Assembly (NCBI GenBank): GCA_015654695.1
Contig: JAATGJ010000027.1
Location: 1-64,000 of the forward strand
Direction of reading: 5' to 3'
Length of the DNA: 64,000 nt
Source of the DNA: Chitinophagales bacterium
Lineage (GTDB): Bacteria > Bacteroidota > Bacteroidia > Chitinophagales > Chitinophagaceae
Shown: positions 21,020-63,117 of the stretch, one piece after another
Layout of the letters: every line of letters begins with the position of its first letter
Position numbering within the stretch: the first letter of the stretch is position 1
Notes under the pieces: model-generated
The model's database searches: none
Told to the model about the DNA's origin: nothing
What the model saw: only the letters and a program-made list of their open reading frames with translations
Made by a program: the position numbers and the translations under genes

Positions 21020-21100
21020 CAACAACCCTAAAATTTTTATTTTCTTTATTGCTTTAGAAGAGTCGAGTAGGCAAGCGCATTTCAGCGCAAGCCGCTCACG

Positions 21101-21134
21101 GAACCGTGCTTGAAAGTCTCCCCTCACACGGCTC
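21101..21134 (-). ncRNA. Group II intron domain V
   Basis: On the minus strand the 34-nt element opens with GAGCCGTG and closes with CACGGTTC; these arms form an 8-bp stem with one G-U pair, and the AGC catalytic triad lies at positions 2-4. The length, arm sequence and placement just downstream of the RT stop codon are diagnostic of the catalytic core of group II introns. An adjacent stem with GCGC/GCGC and GGC/GCC pairings follows as domain VI. Confidence 0.92.
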
Positions 21135-21145
21135 TTGTTATTCAA

Positions 21146-22414
21146 TCATGTTAGTATTCCCTTGCGCCAGTGATAAAACAAATCAGGTGCGGCTTGCTGT
21201 ATGGCACGATACTTATCATACATTTTGGCTTTGCTGCTGATTCTATATTTATTCTTTATCCAACTTCGGATTAAAGTATTCAAATAATAGAATACCCGAT
21301 ACGCTTCATACCTGCTGTATTTCGTGTAATAATTCATCCAGCCCCTTATCTTGGGATTCAGTTGTTCCGCAAACCATTCCAAAGTCATATTGCTCCATCG
21401 TGTAACCAGTATCTCTCTCAGCGCTTTTCTGATATGCGCTTTTGCCTGATTGCTTATGCCTGCCATGAACACCACGAACCTTGTACCTATATCCCGTTGA
21501 CTTTTTATAGTTCGTGGTTGAAAACTGTAACTCAGAAAAGCAAAACTTTCGTTATCTCCTTTCCCTTTACGCTCATAGTTTTTACAATATACAATCTTTG
21601 TCTTTTCAGGATGCAATGTAAGGTCGTATGCTGCCATTCTGTTTTGCAACAGCAACAGCACCCTTTCTGCTTCTTCCTTACTGGCGCAATGAATAACTAT
21701 ATCGTCTGCATAGCGTTCAAACGGACATTGAGGACTACTTTCATCCATCCACTTATCAAAAGCATAATGCAAATAGAGATTAGCAAACAGCGGACTAACA
21801 ACTCCTCCTTGCGGAGTTCCTTTTGTTCTTCCTGCTATGCTTCCATCTTCCTGTTCTACGCCTGCCTTTAACCACCGTTCTGCATATAGCAACACCCACT
21901 TCTCCTGTGTATGCTTCTGCAGCATCTCCATTAGTATTGCATGGCTGATGTTATCAAAGAACCCTTTGATGTCAACATCTATCACCCATGAATACTTTCT
22001 GGTATTTTCCTGGCATTGAGCTAACGCATGATGTGCACTTCTGCCTGGCCTGTCACCAAAGGAACTATTGTGAAATAATGGTTCCAGATAAGGTTCTAAA
22101 TAATCTTTTACTACACCTTGTGCAATACGGTCGCTGACCGTAGGTATTCCTAATGGTCTTTTACCGCCTTGCTTCTTGGGAATAAATACCGTTCGTACCG
22201 GTGGTGGAAAGTAACTACCCGATGCCATGCGGTTCCAGATTTTGTACAGGTTGCCAGACAGGTTTTCATTGAACATTTCAATGCTCTGCCTGTCTATTCC
22301 TGCACTTCCATCTTTTGCAATTACTTTCAGATAGCTGTCATACACCATCCGTTTACTAACCGGCAATGACCTTGTCAGTTCTTCTGTCATCATCCTCTTT
22401 TTGAGTTGTTTCAA
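21146..22414 (-). CDS. ltrA: Group II intron reverse transcriptase/maturase (LtrA-like)
   Basis: 422 residues from a TTG start at 22414; an ATG at 22393 gives MMTEELTRSLP and is an alternative. RT blocks are complete: FIPKKQGGKRPLGIPTVSDR, VIDVDIKGFFDNISH (first catalytic Asp), TPQGGVVSPLFANLYLH and the RYADDIVIH active site. A maturase (X) domain follows with AHIRKALREIL and WMNYYTKYSRYEAY. No HNH endonuclease domain is present, so the protein is of the endonuclease-lacking kind, typically dependent on replication-fork or single-stranded targets. It lies in domain IV of the intron whose domain V begins 11 bases beyond the stop. No disabling change is seen. Confidence 0.95.
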   Translation of the reverse strand: MKQLKKRMMTEELTRSLPVSKRMVYDSYLKVIAKDGSAGIDRQSIEMFNENLSGNLYKIWNRMASGSYFPPPVRTVFIPKKQGGKRPLGIPTVSDRIAQGVVKDYLEPYLEPLFHNSSFGDRPGRSAHHALAQCQENTRKYSWVIDVDIKGFFDNISHAILMEMLQKHTQEKWVLLYAERWLKAGVEQEDGSIAGRTKGTPQGGVVSPLFANLYLHYAFDKWMDESSPQCPFERYADDIVIHCASKEEAERVLLLLQNRMAAYDLTLHPEKTKIVYCKNYERKGKGDNESFAFLSYSFQPRTIKSQRDIGTRFVVFMAGISNQAKAHIRKALREILVTRWSNMTLEWFAEQLNPKIRGWMNYYTKYSRYEAYRVFYYLNTLIRSWIKNKYRISSKAKMYDKYRAIQQAAPDLFYHWRKGILT

Positions 22415-23048
22415 AATACTGTGACTGAATAACCGAAGCCCTTCGCTCCATCCACCTTTCGGCGGACATCATCACTACTATGGCTTCGTCCGACGCTTCT
22501 TGTTGCTTCTCTCCGCCTGTGGCGGAAATTGAGTTGTCGTATGAACTGTATATCTTTTTGATGTACAGCCTTCCGATGAGTACCGGAATTCCGGCAAAGC
22601 TTTTTGCACATCAACAAGACAGCTTCCCACGTTCCATAAATAAGCCTGTGTAAAGTTCCTGCCGCCTTAATGCCGCCTGCCCTGTAACCAGTAATGAGGT
22701 CTTCCGTTACAATTTGTCCTATTCACTCGTAGAAAGAATGGTTTTGACAGGAAGGAGTTCTTTCGACACTTCTTCAGCGGTTCATTTTTATTCAGCTCCT
22801 TTACACTCACCTGACTTCTTACGAAGCCTTTTCCTTATCGTTCACTACCATAGCTTTTAACTACAGCAGCATAAGGTGGTTTGTACAATCCGCCTCAACA
22901 GCTTGTACGATAGGACGACTATCATCTTACTTACAGCATTTAAAGAACTATTCATTGATCTTTAATTCGTGGCACACCTAAGGAGAACCGGGCCACATAT
23001 CCGCACACAAAGTCATCTGACACTCGCCTGTGAAACGAGAAGACGATT

Positions 23049-43459: not shown

Positions 43460-43494
43460 CACTCACTATTCACCATTCACCTCTCATCACTGAC
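43460..43494 (-). repeat. Heptad repeat between araD and araA
   Basis: Five successive 7-mers on the plus strand, starting at 43460, 43467, 43474, 43481 and 43488, share the form C(A/T)nTCAC (for example TATTCAC and CATTCAC). On the transcribed minus strand the core reads GTGAATG and GTGAATA. The last unit reaches into the araD stop codon. The 7-bp periodicity matches that of the nuoK/nuoL spacer. Confidence 0.6.
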
Positions 43495-44182: not shown

Positions 44183-44244
44183 ATTGTCAGTCAATGGTAA
44201 ATAGTAAAGTAGAATTGATTCATTTCATACTGATCATTTACTAC
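44183..44244 (-). repeat. Fold-back spacer between araB and araD with 7-bp periodicity
   Basis: On the minus strand the spacer opens with GTGAGTAGTAAATG and closes with an arm whose complement starts GTCAGTCAATGG and continues with GTAAATA. The two arms are similar (shared GTAAAT and AGTA blocks) and can fold into an imperfect stem. Units of about seven bases are visible in both arms. The fit is loose and the boundaries are approximate. Confidence 0.4.
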
Positions 44245-47351: not shown

Positions 47352-50033
47352 ATGTATAACGCATTCATTTCTTATTCTCATTCGGCAGATGACAAATTTG
47401 CGCCATCACTACAGGTAGCATTACAAAAGTTTGCAAAACCATGGTATAAAAAACGCAACCTCGAAATTTTCCGTGATGAATCAAGTCTTTCGGCTTCACC
47501 ACATCTTTGGAGCAATATTACCCATGCATTAGACCAATCTGAATACTTGATATTGCTGGCATCTCCGGCATCTGAAAATTCAAAATGGGTTAACAAAGAA
47601 ATTGAATACTGGCTTGAACATAAATCCATTGATAATGTACTAATAGCTTTAACGGATGGGAAACTGGAATGGAACGATGAAAATAAATGTTTTCTGAACC
47701 CCGATAATAATTCACTGCCGCCAGTATTGGATAATAAGTTTGATTCAGAACCATTTTATATTGACCTGCGATTTTCAAGAACAGAAGAAGACCTTTCTTT
47801 AAACAACCTCATTTTTAAAAAAGAAGTATTAAAGTTAGCCGCTAAATTACATGGAAAGCAACCCAATGACCTGGCAAGCGAAGAAGTGACAGTACACCGG
47901 AAAATGATAGGCATAAGAAATGCAGCGATATCATTACTGATTTTTCTTTTCATTCTTTCAGTTGGAGCAGCATTGCTTGCTAATATAAAAACCAACGAGG
48001 CAATACAGGAACGCAATATTGCCCAGGCAAATTACTTAAGGGCGGAAGCTAAAAGTTTATTGGAAACAGATCCAACGCTTGCTCTAAGATTGTATGAACA
48101 GGCAATGTTAAATCATCCGGATAGCACTATTGAAAAAGAGTCTATTGAAATCTATGACCGAAACTCCTTTTACAAAAATGTTGTAAAGTTTGATTCTGAG
48201 GTCAGAACGATAGCCATTTCTCCCGATGGTAAAACAATACTTACTACCTCCTTGTTTGATAGCACTGCCACGTTACAGGATTTTCAGGGAAATCCAATCT
48301 GGAAATTTGGACACAATGGTGAAGTTTATTCAGCAGTGTTTTCTCCTGATGGAAAGACGATACTTACCGGCTCAGCAGACAAAACCGCCCGGTTATGGGA
48401 CTTAGCGGGAAATACCTTACAGGAGTTTAAAGGCCATCATGATGAAGTTATGGTGGTAACTTTTTCTGCTGATGGAAAAACGATATTGACAGGTTCAGCA
48501 GATAAAACCGCCCGGTTATGGGACTTAGCGGGAAATACCTTACAGGAGTTTAAAGGCCATCATGATGAAGTTATGGTGGCAACTTTTTCTGCTGATGGAA
48601 AAACGATATTGACAGGTTCAAATGATAAGACCGCAAGGCTATGGGACTTACAGGGAAATACTCTCCGGGAATTTGCAGGACATAATGATATTATCAGCTC
48701 CGTTACCTTTTCTCCCGATGGAAAAGAAATATTGACCAGCTCTTTTGACAGCAGTGCCCGGCTGTGGAACTTACAAGGGAAAACGCTTCAAAAATATATA
48801 GGTCATAAAGGTGCGGTTAAATGCGCAAGCTTTTCCGCTGATGGAAAAACAATACTGACTGGTTCAGAAGACGAAACTGTCCGATGGTGGGACTTACGAG
48901 GAAATACTCTGCGGGAATTTAGAGGTCACAGTAACCCGCTTTTTTCTGTAGCCTTTTCCACAGATAGAAAAACAATATTTACTGCTTCTCTTGATAGTAC
49001 CTACCGCTCGTGGTATTTAGAAGGAAATATCGTCCGCCAATTAGTTAATGATAGCAGTATAGTAAGTTCAGTCGCATTTTCTCCTGATGGAAATACAATA
49101 CTTACCGGATCCGGCGATAAAACAGCCCGCTTGTGGGACTTGCAGGGAAATATTCTTCGGGAATTTAAAGGCCATCATGATGCAGTTATGTCTGCAGCTT
49201 TTTCACCCGATGGAAAAATAATAGTTACCGGCTCAGCAGATAAGACCATCAGGCTGTGGGACCTGCAGGGGAATCCTTTAAAGATATTTTATGATGACAC
49301 ACTCTACACCCTACCCGGATTCACTTCGGTTGCCTTTTCTCCCGATGGAAAACAAATATTGACTGGCTCCATTCACAGCAAGGCCAGGCTATGGGATTTG
49401 CAGGGGATTATCACTAAGGAATTCTATATTGCTTATATTGACTCCGGGATGGTTACTTACGTCAGCTTTTCTCCCGATGGAAAAAAAATCCTAACCGGGT
49501 TTTCAGATGGTACTCTTTGGATAGGAAATGGTAGCACTAAATTGTGGGACTTACAAGGAAATGTTCTTCGGAATTTTTACAAAGAGCAAACTGGCCCTGT
49601 CACATCTGCCATCTTTGCGCCCGATGGAAAAACTATAATTACGGGCTCCGGGGATGGTTGCACCCGGATTTGGGATTTACACGGAAATATTATCCGGGAG
49701 TTGAAAGGTTATTATGGCGCAGTTACTTACGTAGCCATTTCTCCCGATGGTAAAAAAATACTTACTGCTTATGAAAATGGCAGCATAGTACAGTTATGGG
49801 ATTATCAGGGAAAGGTACTCTGGGAATATAAAGTGCCAGTGATTATTACCGATTCAGAGCCCTTGAGGGTTAAATCCGTCGCCTTTTCTCCCGATGGAAA
49901 ACAAATACTTACCAGCTCAGGAGATAATATAACCCGCTTGTGGGATGTTCCCGTTCAACTGGATGATTTTCTTAAAAGCGATAAGATTGAACCATTGTCA
50001 GGAGAGCAGAAAAAAAAATTCAGGATCAAATAA
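47352..50033 (+). CDS. TIR-transmembrane-WD40 protein, putative immune sensor/effector
   Basis: 893 residues. Residues 2-165 form a TIR-like domain: FISYSHSADD (box 1), FRDESSL, and SKWVNKE with the conserved W79/E83, E83 being the likely catalytic glutamate of NAD-cleaving TIRs. A transmembrane helix (about 188-210, AAISLLIFLFILSVGAALLA) follows, then a helical linker (SLLETDPTLALRLYEQAML) and 14 WD40-like repeats from about 283 to 870, each with FSPDGK, ILTGS and RLWDL elements: enough for two seven-bladed propellers. Predicted topology: TIR on the cytoplasmic side, propellers across the membrane, unless the helix is a hairpin. Such TIR-TM-WD40 proteins are known from other bacteria. NAD hydrolysis and ligand are inference. 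It lies alone on the plus strand with the hydrolase gene 170 bp downstream. Confidence 0.9.
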   Translation: MYNAFISYSHSADDKFAPSLQVALQKFAKPWYKKRNLEIFRDESSLSASPHLWSNITHALDQSEYLILLASPASENSKWVNKEIEYWLEHKSIDNVLIALTDGKLEWNDENKCFLNPDNNSLPPVLDNKFDSEPFYIDLRFSRTEEDLSLNNLIFKKEVLKLAAKLHGKQPNDLASEEVTVHRKMIGIRNAAISLLIFLFILSVGAALLANIKTNEAIQERNIAQANYLRAEAKSLLETDPTLALRLYEQAMLNHPDSTIEKESIEIYDRNSFYKNVVKFDSEVRTIAISPDGKTILTTSLFDSTATLQDFQGNPIWKFGHNGEVYSAVFSPDGKTILTGSADKTARLWDLAGNTLQEFKGHHDEVMVVTFSADGKTILTGSADKTARLWDLAGNTLQEFKGHHDEVMVATFSADGKTILTGSNDKTARLWDLQGNTLREFAGHNDIISSVTFSPDGKEILTSSFDSSARLWNLQGKTLQKYIGHKGAVKCASFSADGKTILTGSEDETVRWWDLRGNTLREFRGHSNPLFSVAFSTDRKTIFTASLDSTYRSWYLEGNIVRQLVNDSSIVSSVAFSPDGNTILTGSGDKTARLWDLQGNILREFKGHHDAVMSAAFSPDGKIIVTGSADKTIRLWDLQGNPLKIFYDDTLYTLPGFTSVAFSPDGKQILTGSIHSKARLWDLQGIITKEFYIAYIDSGMVTYVSFSPDGKKILTGFSDGTLWIGNGSTKLWDLQGNVLRNFYKEQTGPVTSAIFAPDGKTIITGSGDGCTRIWDLHGNIIRELKGYYGAVTYVAISPDGKKILTAYENGSIVQLWDYQGKVLWEYKVPVIITDSEPLRVKSVAFSPDGKQILTSSGDNITRLWDVPVQLDDFLKSDKIEPLSGEQKKKFRIK
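48372..48623 (+). repeat. Near-identical tandem duplication inside the WD40 region
   Basis: The segment 48372-48500 recurs at 48495-48623 with an offset of 123 bp, exactly 41 codons, one WD40 unit. Only two mismatches were found: at 48380/48503 (c/t) and at 48457/48580 (t/c, giving V or A in VMVVTF against VMVATF). The other WD40 units are far more diverged. This indicates a recent unit duplication or gene conversion. Confidence 0.92.
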
Positions 50034-60835: not shown

Positions 60836-62728
60836 TTATTTTCTCAGGAAAAATTGCAACACAAATACCACCAGCATGCTCAATACCATCAGGAATATAT
60901 AACTGCCTACCTGCCCGCTTTGTAACAAGCGTAACTGGCGGCTGCTATAGTTAACGATCCTGCCAACTCCATTCACAACACCATCAATCACAAATTTTTC
61001 AATAAAAGAATTCAGGAAGCCTCCAAACTTATTAAGGGGGTTCACAATGATCTTATCATATAATTCATCCACATACCATTTATTCTCCAGCACTTTTCCA
61101 AAACCTGCCGCTTCGCTGCGCTGGTAATTCCTGAATTTGAACCAGGCAGCAATGATCATCGCGATTACAAGCACTGTTGACAAAGCCATTAATCCATACT
61201 CAGTAGAATGAGATACAGGAGTTCCTTCATGTGGTTTTATCACCGGTGATAAAAATGCGGATAGTTTATCTCCGCCATGCATCAGCGCTTCAGGGATACC
61301 CACAAAACCACCGATGATGGAAAGCACCGCTAATATTATTAATGGAATAGTCATAGCTGCAGGGCTTTCATGCAGGTGATGTTCCTGCTCGTGCGTACCC
61401 CTGAACTTTCCGCTGAATGTAATAAACAACAAGCGGAACATATAAAAGGCTGTCAGCAATGCAGTGAATAAAGCGATACCATATAACACGGGACTTTTCT
61501 CAAATGCACTCAGCAGGATCGCGTCTTTGGAAAAGAAACCACTGAATGGCGGGATGCCGGCAATCGCAATACAACCTACCAGGAAAGTAAAATAGGTGAC
61601 AGATAATTTTTTACTCAAACCACCCATGTTACGGATATCCTGTTCGCCACCCATAGCATGTATCACGCTGCCACTGCCAAGGAATAACAGGGCTTTGAAA
61701 AAAGCATGGGTCATTACATGAAAGACAGCGGCTACATAAGCGCCTGTTCCCAGTGCAAGGAACATAAATCCTAACTGACTTACTGTAGAATAAGCCAGCA
61801 CTTTTTTAATATCATTTTGCTTCAGTGCGATTGTAGCAGCTAGCAGTGCAGTAGCCAATCCAACTATTGCGACTATATTCATAGTAGTATGTGACAACGA
61901 ATACAGCACATTACTTCTTGCGATCATATAAATACCAGCCGTCACCATCGTAGCAGCATGGATCAATGCAGAAACAGGCGTAGGACCCGCCATTGCATCC
62001 GGTAACCACGTATAAAGAGGTATCTGTGCGCTTTTACCTGTAGCGCCAACAAATAGCAAAAGCGTGATACCTGTAATATCAGCAGTTGAAAACTTGTTTT
62101 CACCAGCAAACTGGAATACATCATGATAGTTTACATTACCCACTTTCTTGATGATCCAGAAAATAGCTATCAAAAAAGCAAGGTCGCCGATACGGTTCAT
62201 GATAAAAGCCTTGTTGGCCGCCTTATTGTACTCTGCTTTCTTAAACCAGTATCCGATCAGCAAATAAGAACATAATCCCACGCCTTCCCAGCCAATGAAC
62301 ATGATAACATAGTTGCCGCCCATTACTAACAACAACATGGAGAATACAAAAAGATTGAGATAGGAAAAATAACGGCCAAAATGTTCTGTCTTCTCTTCAT
62401 GCATATAAGAAGCAGAGTAAACATGAATAAGAAAACCCACGCCTGTAATAATTAAAAGAAATAAGGAGGAAAGCTGGTCAAGCTGAAAAGCAAAAGGGAT
62501 ACTCAGGTCGCCTACGCTGATAAAATTGAAATAGTCAGCTACATGTGTATTACCGTCTTTTACCTGCAGAAACACCCAGATGCTCATGACAAAAGAAGCA
62601 AGAATAACACCGCTGCCGATTACTCCTATCGCTGATTTGGATAAATGTTTCCGTCCCAGTCCATTAATAAGAAAGCCAAGTAATGGAAAGAGAGGTATCA
62701 ACCAGGCTATTTGTAAAGCATTCTGCAT
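60836..62728 (-). CDS. nuoL: NADH-quinone oxidoreductase subunit L
   Basis: 630 residues. The distal membrane subunit of complex I, with about 16 helices including the long lateral helix (HL) region at the C-terminus. GWEGVGLCSYLLIGYWFKKAEYNKAANKAF, PLYTWLPDAMAGPTPVSALIHAATMVTAGIYM and KKVLAYSTVSQLGFM are all characteristic. The nuoK-nuoL spacer holds a strong hairpin with heptad repeats. Confidence 0.97.
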   Translation of the reverse strand: MQNALQIAWLIPLFPLLGFLINGLGRKHLSKSAIGVIGSGVILASFVMSIWVFLQVKDGNTHVADYFNFISVGDLSIPFAFQLDQLSSLFLLIITGVGFLIHVYSASYMHEEKTEHFGRYFSYLNLFVFSMLLLVMGGNYVIMFIGWEGVGLCSYLLIGYWFKKAEYNKAANKAFIMNRIGDLAFLIAIFWIIKKVGNVNYHDVFQFAGENKFSTADITGITLLLFVGATGKSAQIPLYTWLPDAMAGPTPVSALIHAATMVTAGIYMIARSNVLYSLSHTTMNIVAIVGLATALLAATIALKQNDIKKVLAYSTVSQLGFMFLALGTGAYVAAVFHVMTHAFFKALLFLGSGSVIHAMGGEQDIRNMGGLSKKLSVTYFTFLVGCIAIAGIPPFSGFFSKDAILLSAFEKSPVLYGIALFTALLTAFYMFRLLFITFSGKFRGTHEQEHHLHESPAAMTIPLIILAVLSIIGGFVGIPEALMHGGDKLSAFLSPVIKPHEGTPVSHSTEYGLMALSTVLVIAMIIAAWFKFRNYQRSEAAGFGKVLENKWYVDELYDKIIVNPLNKFGGFLNSFIEKFVIDGVVNGVGRIVNYSSRQLRLLQSGQVGSYIFLMVLSMLVVFVLQFFLRK

Positions 62729-62734
62729 AATACC

Positions 62735-62782
62735 GAAGTCAGAAGTCGGAAGTCAGACGCCGGAAATCCGGCCTCTGACTTC
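62735..62782. repeat. Heptad repeat and hairpin between nuoK and nuoL
   Basis: GAAGTC recurs at 62735, 62742 and 62749, a strict 7-bp period. The third copy opens a hairpin: 62749-62763 pairs with 62768-62782 around AAAT, 14 pairs and one C-C mismatch. The arms are GAAGTCAGACGCCGG and CCGGCCTCTGACTTC. There is no T-tract, so this is not a simple terminator but might stabilise or process the nuoK end of the mRNA. Confidence 0.8.
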
Positions 62783-62787
62783 AGATA

Positions 62788-63117
62788 TCAATGTTTAAGT
62801 CTGTTTAAAAAATTCACATCTACCGAATGGATATTCCTATACATCATGACAATAATAGCCAGCCCAACACTCACTTCCGCTGCCGCTACTACCATAATAA
62901 AGAAAACAAATATCTGCCCGTCAATACCAGCCGAAGCATTTGTGGCGCCATTCGTTGCGTGGTGCATTTTTGAAAAAGCCACCAGCAATAAATTCACCGC
63001 ATTCATCATAAGTTCAATGCACATAAAAATAATGATGGCATTACGGCGTGTGAGTACCCCCACTATCCCGATACAGAATAATGCGATAGACAGAAATATG
63101 TAATAATTTATCGGCAT
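62788..63117 (-). CDS. nuoK: NADH-quinone oxidoreductase subunit K
   Basis: 109 residues with three helices: [25 protein letters not shown], the second with [17 protein letters not shown] (conserved Glu residues of the membrane proton path) and the third with [23 protein letters not shown] small core subunit of complex I that links to the antiporter-like modules. The insertion [18 protein letters not shown] between helices two and three is slightly longer than in E. coli NuoK. It lies between nuoJ (83-bp spacer with a repeat) and nuoL. Confidence 0.96.

What the first reader, a model, noticed from the sequence alone, without database searches (positions are those of the whole stretch)
62735..62782. 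Heptanucleotide repeats folding back in the nuoK/nuoL spacer
Seen: GAAGTC at strict 7-bp spacing followed by a 14-pair hairpin, inside an essential operon. The araD/araA spacer has CACTCAC/TATTCAC/CATTCAC heptads and the araB/araD spacer also has rough heptads. Different sequence but the same period, position and lack of T-tract suggest one mechanism. Inference: replication-slippage or reverse-transcribed addition in intra-operon spacers.
Basis: partly seen in the sequence, partly recalled or inferred. Interest (0 to 1): 0.55.

Follow-up and report, generated by a model that had tools for sequence, protein, structure and literature searches.

The report
Seven-base repeat brackets between genes
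The odd seven-base repeats between two respiratory genes are real: they belong to a large, fast-changing class of short repeat arrays that fill the gaps between genes in these bacteria and keep a fixed orientation towards the gap's edges, which simple copying slips do not explain.

Summary
The 59-nt nuoK–nuoL spacer is almost wholly a degenerate heptad array, (GARGYCN)n, folding back into 14 pairs; 0 of 5000 shuffles match its periodicity. It is one copy of a genome-wide class. In intergenic samples of 8 genomes of the family, arrays of period 7 (198 observed, 0 in one shuffle), 8 (84/0) and 9 (27/1) stand out. Each array-rich genome has its own shared vocabulary of units (13–21% of array pairs from different spacers align, against 0.1–4% between genera), with fixed variable columns. 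Arrays are polar: the purine-rich strand reads inward from the nearest gene edge in 237 of 289 (45 against, 7 ties), even between convergent genes (43:2) and where arms differ in family. Orthologous nuo spacers gain and lose unrelated arrays within one genus. Reverse transcriptase, Ku and Y1 transposase genes do not track the arrays. Closest known kind: intergenic heptamer repeats of Xanthomonas/Nostoc (PMC4692102), which already show convergent pairs. Verdict: new variant of a known kind; the writing mechanism is unresolved.

The parts
62729..62787 (.). whole nuoK-nuoL spacer (59 nt), almost entirely made of the element
62735..62755 (+). three exact heptads GAAGTCA GAAGTCG GAAGTCA (purine-rich arm, left edge)
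62756..62769 (+). degenerate heptads GACGCCG GAAATCC continuing the register
   Evidence: sequence
62749..62782 (.). fold-back hairpin: 14 pairs, one C-C mismatch, 4-nt loop
62770..62782 (-). pyrimidine-rich arm; read on the - strand it is GAAGTCA GAGGCC, same family in opposite orientation
62788..63117 (-). nuoK (PF00420), gene upstream of the element in the operon
60836..62728 (-). nuoL (PF00361/PF00662), gene downstream of the element in the operon
43460..43480 (-). second family, GTGAATG GTGAATA GTGAGTG (CACTCAC TATTCAC CATTCAC on +), in the araD-araA spacer
44195..44244 (.). araB-araD spacer with rough, sub-threshold heptads
   Evidence: not detected at threshold

Best explanation
The nuoK-nuoL feature is a lineage-specific copy of a dispersed class of degenerate short-unit arrays (units of 7, 8 or 9 nt). 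In this bacterial family they fill intergenic spacers as brackets: a purine-rich arm at the left edge, a loop of ordinary spacer DNA, a pyrimidine-rich arm at the right edge. SHOWN: the periods, the per-genome vocabulary shared between loci, the fixed variable columns, the edge-relative polarity, and rapid turnover at orthologous spacers. INFERRED: arrays are written by DNA synthesis that realigns in 7-9-nt steps at 3' ends facing into the spacer from both edges (for example at a stalled or broken spacer), borrowing units from arrays elsewhere in the same genome by short-homology template switching. The product is tolerated wherever no coding or promoter sequence is hit. It is mostly mutational filler rather than a selected RNA device, though individual hairpins may affect the mRNA.
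For: Period spectrum over 8 genomes, 1180 intergenic pieces, 255,239 bp: lag 7 198 vs 0, lag 8 84 vs 0, lag 9 27 vs 1; lags 5, 6, 10-13 1-8. G015 genes: 6 lag-7 arrays in 372 kb. Shared vocabulary: within-genome similarity of arrays in different spacers 0.21/0.19/0.13 (G027/G009/G015) against 0.001-0.036 between these genera. Fixed columns, e.g. GT[G74/C34]AAT-N with two invariant columns in 108 units of G009. Polarity 237:45 (7 ties); convergent 43:2, divergent 40:8, co-directional 154:35; other lags 38:57 (8 ties); array-free spacers near 0.5 purine. Single-array spacers obey too (52:15, 3 ties). G009 arms do not match each other (8.6 vs 8.2 permuted) yet keep polarity; G015 arms do match (21.9 vs 9.2). 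Turnover: the nuoD-E spacer holds three unrelated arrays in three same-genus genomes; nuoK-L is 16 and 20 nt without array in G002 and G004 and carries a different heptad hairpin in G010.
Against: No enzyme, break or intermediate was seen. Ku does not track the arrays. In G015 and G027 the two arms match beyond permutation, which hairpin selection or fold-back copying would also give. Polarity is weak in the other phyla sampled (left 55:28, right 39:43). 45 of 289 arrays break the rule. Arrays in one spacer, or in local duplications, are not independent counts. The window's own genome has few arrays (lag 7: 3 vs 0.4 expected; polarity 6:2).
Confidence: 0.45

Rival explanations
1. Plain replication slippage: each array grows locally by 7-8-nt polymerase slippage from a chance seed and then decays by point mutation; hairpins arise by fold-back copying.
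For: Heptamers are the most over-represented unit size in many bacteria and polymerase slippage has been proposed as the reason (PMC4679880 introduction; PMC4692102 passages). G015 and G027 arms match each other. Long pure arrays exist, e.g. the nuoI-J spacer of G004.
Against: Units and their variable columns are shared between unlinked loci of a genome but not between genera; polarity relative to the spacer edges; arms of unrelated families in G009.
Confidence: 0.22
2. Selected RNA or DNA function: intercistronic hairpins or protein-binding arrays acting on mRNA stability, termination or translation.
For: Stable fold at nuoK-nuoL; 43 of 48 G015 pairs have matching arms; arrays abut gene edges (within 6 nt on the left in 32 and on the right in 34 of 105 array-bearing spacers of G015); divergent spacers carry fewer arrays (18/49 vs 68/143 and 19/36).
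Against: Present in co-directional, convergent and divergent spacers; absent from the same spacer in sister species; arms do not pair in G009; many unrelated units per genome.
Confidence: 0.15
3. Mobile miniature element (REP or MITE type) whose terminal repeats are the heptads.
For: Dispersed, intergenic, palindromic, patchy; a few G015 loops share an inner inverted repeat.
Against: Most loops are unrelated; G014 carries arrays but no Y1_Tnp match, and the array-rich G009 has one weak match (24.6 bits); of 21 Y1_Tnp loci checked, 2 had a 7-mer array and both lay about 1.4 kb away.
Confidence: 0.1
4. Telomerase-like reverse transcriptase adds the repeats from an RNA template, as DRT10 does for free cDNA.
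For: 3'-strand polarity and 7-9-nt units resemble templated repeat addition (PMC12632851 passages, describing a 9-nt repeat).
Against: No RVT_1 match in G009, G002, G003 or G014, all with arrays; no array within about 1.5 kb of the 11 RT loci checked; the window's RT is a group II intron maturase.
Confidence: 0.03

Closest known systems
Intergenic GGGAATC / GGGGA(C/T)T heptamer repeats of Xanthomonas and Nostoc (PMC4692102; sections 10 and 11 read)
   Same: Degenerate heptads, dispersed, mostly intergenic, also inside an operon (pecE-pecF), variable between close species. In Xanthomonas, pairs in convergent orientation (70 and 75 cases) and repeats lying nearer their 5' neighbouring ORF (28 vs 160 nt), i.e. 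the same purine-rich, edge-relative polarity.
   Different: There: one G-rich family, discussed as G-quadruplexes. Here: several non-G-rich families per genome, periods 7, 8 and 9, up to 108 of 250 spacers (G015), and arms of different families.
TAACTGA heptamers of Beggiatoaceae, Cyanobacteria and a few Bacteroidetes (PMC4679880; introduction, section 12 and passages read)
   Same: Heptads in spacers, gain and loss between relatives, other heptamer repeats nearby in Bacteroidetes.
   Different: One exact unit, placed mainly upstream of starts; related heptamers are rare there; only one indirect repeat in that genome.
STRR heptanucleotide repeats of heterocystous cyanobacteria (name recalled; passage in PMC4692102, mentions Calothrix heptanucleotides)
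   Same: Tandem heptads, several families, dispersed.
   Different: Polarity and bracket arrangement not known to me; not tested here.
REP/BIME elements with RAYT transposases (PMC3733652 passages)
   Same: Extragenic palindromes, dispersed, patchy.
   Different: No 7-8-nt internal period; GTAG/CGTC tags and RAYT flanking are the REP hallmarks, and RAYT flanking is not met here.
DRT10 telomerase-like repeat synthesis (PMC12632851 passages)
   Same: Short tandem repeats built by a polymerase in steps of about one unit.
   Different: RNA-templated free cDNA; no RVT_1 gene in several array-bearing genomes.

Membership tests
Intergenic heptamer-repeat class (Xanthomonas/Nostoc type) | Tandem units of 7 nt above background, mostly intergenic | tested here: met
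Intergenic heptamer-repeat class (Xanthomonas/Nostoc type) | Degenerate unit with fixed conserved positions, dispersed genome-wide | tested here: met
Intergenic heptamer-repeat class (Xanthomonas/Nostoc type) | Convergent (purine-left, pyrimidine-right) pairing | tested here: met
   family samples: RY 32 vs YR 1; G015: RY 43 vs YR 1
Intergenic heptamer-repeat class (Xanthomonas/Nostoc type) | G-tracts able to form G-quadruplexes (a feature of the published families, not of heptamer repeats as such) | tested here: not met
   units such as GAAGTCN, GTSAATN, AAAAKTC, AATTTGAA have no GGG
REP/RAYT | Y1 transposase gene present | tested here: inconclusive
   absent in G014, one weak match in G009, present in most others
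REP/RAYT | Transposase gene flanked by the repeats | tested here: not met
   2 of 21 loci had a 7-mer array, both about 1.4 kb away
REP/RAYT | GTAG or CGTC tag at the foot of the palindrome | not tested
   tags known from PMC3733652 only
MITE | Shared internal sequence between copies | tested here: inconclusive
MITE | Target-site duplication | not testable with these tools
   one genome per species; no close strains held
RT-templated repeat addition (DRT10/telomerase-like) | Reverse transcriptase (RVT_1) in array-bearing genomes | tested here: not met
   none in G009, G002, G003, G014
Intrinsic terminator | Hairpin followed by a U-tract at operon ends | tested here: not met
   no T-tract at nuoK-nuoL; element lies inside an operon

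The most novel reading that the evidence does not exclude
A two-ended 'spacer writing' process exists in bacteria: 3' ends facing into a broken or stalled intergenic region are extended from both sides in 7-9-nt steps with purine-rich units drawn from a genome-specific vocabulary, independently of any RVT_1 reverse transcriptase. It leaves purine-to-pyrimidine brackets in up to nearly half of all spacers, and the same process underlies the Xanthomonas and Nostoc heptamers.
Probability: 0.2. Interest if true: 0.85.

Novelty: new variant of a known kind. Interest (0 to 1): 0.52.

Why it matters
Heptamer excess in bacterial genomes has been noted, with polymerase slippage suggested as the cause. 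The polarity rule, the period 7-8-9 spectrum, the within-genome vocabularies and the turnover in an operon that can be followed gene by gene give this question a testable form. They also show that G-quadruplexes and hairpin pairing are not required. If a dedicated enzyme or repair route writes the arrays, it would be a new source of bacterial intergenic DNA. If not, these genomes are a good place to measure 7-nt slippage and exchange between dispersed arrays.

Tried and rejected
Reverse transcriptase: rejected as a requirement, RVT_1 absent from array-bearing genomes; no arrays near 11 RT loci. Ku/NHEJ: no correlation, since G002, G003 and G005 have arrays without Ku, while G012, G007 and G008 have Ku with few or none. 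REP/RAYT: not flanking. Start-codon or terminator selection as the cause of polarity: rejected because convergent spacers obey best (43:2) and starts and stops obey equally (65:13 and 64:14).

The reversed pattern can match the same arrays, so nothing follows about the unit itself. What does follow is that 7-mer and 8-mer arrays in general are frequent in spacers near such arrays in many phyla (85 vs 0.3 and 26 vs 1.3 expected; loci chosen for carrying one array, which was masked). The reversed control is also high for the second family in some relatives (G034 36 matches vs 43 control, G001 111 vs 40, G022 12 vs 17).

Rfam: only group II intron hits in the window. Outputs were cut in the middle by the tool; their totals were complete. 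Prior art was searched; I found no description of these arrays in this bacterial family, but the library holds open-licence papers only.

Full report
OBSERVATION. The spacer between nuoK (62788–63117, -) and nuoL (60836–62728, -) is 59 nt long (62729–62787). On the + strand it reads GAAGTCA GAAGTCG GAAGTCA GACGCCG GAAATCC and then folds back: 62749–62763 pairs with 62768–62782 in 14 pairs with one mismatch. The RNA-sense strand folds at -30.4 kcal/mol (z -5.1). None of 5000 shuffles of the spacer reached its lag-7 or lag-14 score. The araB–araD ones are rough and below my threshold.

A GENOME-WIDE CLASS. GAAGTCNGAAGTC occurs 14 times in the 5.42-Mb genome against 1 for the reversed control. 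The copies are degenerate heptads, GA[A/G]G[T/C]CN, often with opposite-strand units downstream. (GARGYC N)x3 gives 24 matches against 0 in the own genome and is present in 9 of 59 genomes searched; these are 5 of the 7 genomes of the window's genus (the own one included) and 4 of 29 other genomes of the family (overlapping registers counted separately). The second family, (GTGART N)x3, is present in 25 of 59, but there the reversed control is also high in a few genomes.

PERIODS. I sampled about 200–400 kb from each of eight genomes (own sample 393,119 bp including the window). In intergenic sequence, arrays with lag 7 number 198 (0 in one shuffle), lag 8 84 (0), lag 9 27 (1), with harmonics at 14, 16, 21, 24 and 28; lags 5, 6 and 10–13 give 1–8. 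The genomes differ widely at lag 7: G015 109, G009 58, G027 19, G010 6, G000 3, G007 3, G035 3, G012 0. Genes of G015 hold 6 lag-7 arrays in 372 kb. In G015 108 of 250 spacers, and in G009 38 of 115, carry an array.

VOCABULARY. Each array-rich genome uses several unit families, for example GTSAATN, NTAAGTN, AAGGYNT and AAAAKTC in G009; AATTTGAA, CTGARTAA, AATTARG and AAAARTC in G015; NGATGAC in G027. Within a family the variable columns are fixed across loci: in 108 GTGAAT-type units of G009 columns 4 and 5 never vary while column 3 is G74/C34 and column 7 is free (units were picked by similarity to a seed, which limits but does not create this pattern). Arrays from different spacers of one genome align well in 21% (G027), 19% (G009), 13% (G015), 9% (G000) and 0% (G010) of pairs, against 0–4% between genera and 1.5% between loci of other phyla. 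Units are therefore shared in trans within the array-rich genomes.

POLARITY. Spacers with two arrays are purine-left, pyrimidine-right: RY 32 against YR 1 in the family samples and 43 against 1 in G015. Over 289 arrays, 237 have the purine-rich strand reading inward from the nearest gene edge, 45 do not, 7 are ties; convergent 43:2, divergent 40:8, co-directional 154:35; arrays at other lags 38:57 with 8 ties. Array-free spacers show no such skew. Gene starts and stops obey equally (65:13 and 64:14), and so do spacers with a single array (52:15, 3 ties). The arrangement is its own reverse complement, so it is not a matter of transcription direction. In G015 and G027 the two arms match each other far better than permuted arms (21.9 vs 9.2; 27.5 vs 16.0). 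In G009 they do not (8.6 vs 8.2), yet polarity holds there (55:9, 1 tie). Pairing of the arms is thus not required for the polarity.

TURNOVER. In 202 nuo spacers of 19 genomes, 47 hold an array at a slightly lower threshold (5 of the 19 genomes belong to the window's genus). The nuoK–nuoL spacer is 59 nt with the GARGYC hairpin in the own genome, 16 and 20 nt without array in G002 and G004, of other sequence in G003 and G006, and in G010 holds a hairpin of an unrelated heptad (TCAGCTA…TAGCTGA). The nuoD–nuoE spacer carries three unrelated arrays in G000, G004 and G006. G014 has a GTGAAT array in its nuoJ–nuoK spacer. The element here is lineage-specific, and the same spacers are hit repeatedly with different units.

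MECHANISM TESTS. RVT_1 is absent in G009, G002, G003 and G014, Ku does not track the arrays, and Y1 transposases neither track nor flank them. The RT in the window is a group II intron maturase. Loops between arms are mostly unrelated, with a few shared inner inverted repeats. Plain slippage explains a preferred step but not shared vocabularies, fixed columns or polarity; a selected hairpin does not explain G009 or the patchiness; transposition lacks a shared core and a tracking enzyme. My best reading is DNA synthesis realigning in 7–9-nt steps at 3' ends that face into the spacer, with exchange of units between dispersed arrays. The sharing and the polarity are shown as patterns; the enzymology is inferred.

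KNOWN KINDS. PMC4692102 (sections 10 and 11 read) describes degenerate GGGAATC heptads in Xanthomonas: 186 and 183 arrays, 70 and 75 convergent pairs, and repeats nearer their 5' neighbour ORF (28 vs 160 nt), discussed as G-quadruplexes. That is the same polarity with G-rich units; the arrays here lack G-tracts. PMC4679880 (introduction and section 12 read) describes TAACTGA heptamers, with gain and loss in Bacteroidetes. I therefore call this a new variant of a known kind. In 120 loci of many phyla chosen for carrying (GARGYC N)x4, the remaining spacers also show lag 7 (85 vs 0.3) and lag 8 (26 vs 1.3), but polarity there is weak.

LIMITS. Genes were called by longest open frames; arrays in one spacer are not independent; one genome per species is held, so strain-level events could not be seen; relatives are unnamed, so taxonomic statements beyond kinship labels are avoided.

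Noticed in passing
window 21062-22923 (-): Group II intron with maturase (RVT_1 + GIIM; Rfam RF00029 and RF01999 hits); a second full-length RVT_1 match lies in contig C128 of the same genome.
   Followed up: partly
window 48339-49274: 123-bp tandem repeat inside an 893-aa ORF (47352-50033), looking like a WD40-type repeat protein with near-identical recent copies (type recalled, not tested).
   Followed up: no
nuoH-nuoI spacers of L305 to L310, L315, L316: A stretch like ATATATTTGCGAAATTTT (or AATATATTTGCG/CA) just upstream of nuoI recurs in eight genomes of several genera; it resembles the recalled Bacteroidota promoter motif TAnnTTTG, suggesting a conserved internal promoter.
   Followed up: no
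L308 (G004), nuoI-nuoJ spacer: A long, nearly pure heptad array (CGGTAGG/CGGTAGA type, about a dozen units) unlike the degenerate arrays elsewhere.
   Followed up: no
L266, L267, L268, L274 (G009), contig starts: Three contig ends share GAAACGACATTG next to a heptad array, and all four contig starts carry arrays, as if assemblies break at a repeat bordered by arrays.
   Followed up: no
L268, L269, L273 (G009): A palindrome GGTTCGTGTATACACGAACC (with variants) recurs in loops between arrays.
   Followed up: no
L350, L356, L366 (G015): Nested inner inverted repeat GAACGCAGATTTTCATGATTTTCATGAT... inside several octad brackets.
   Followed up: partly
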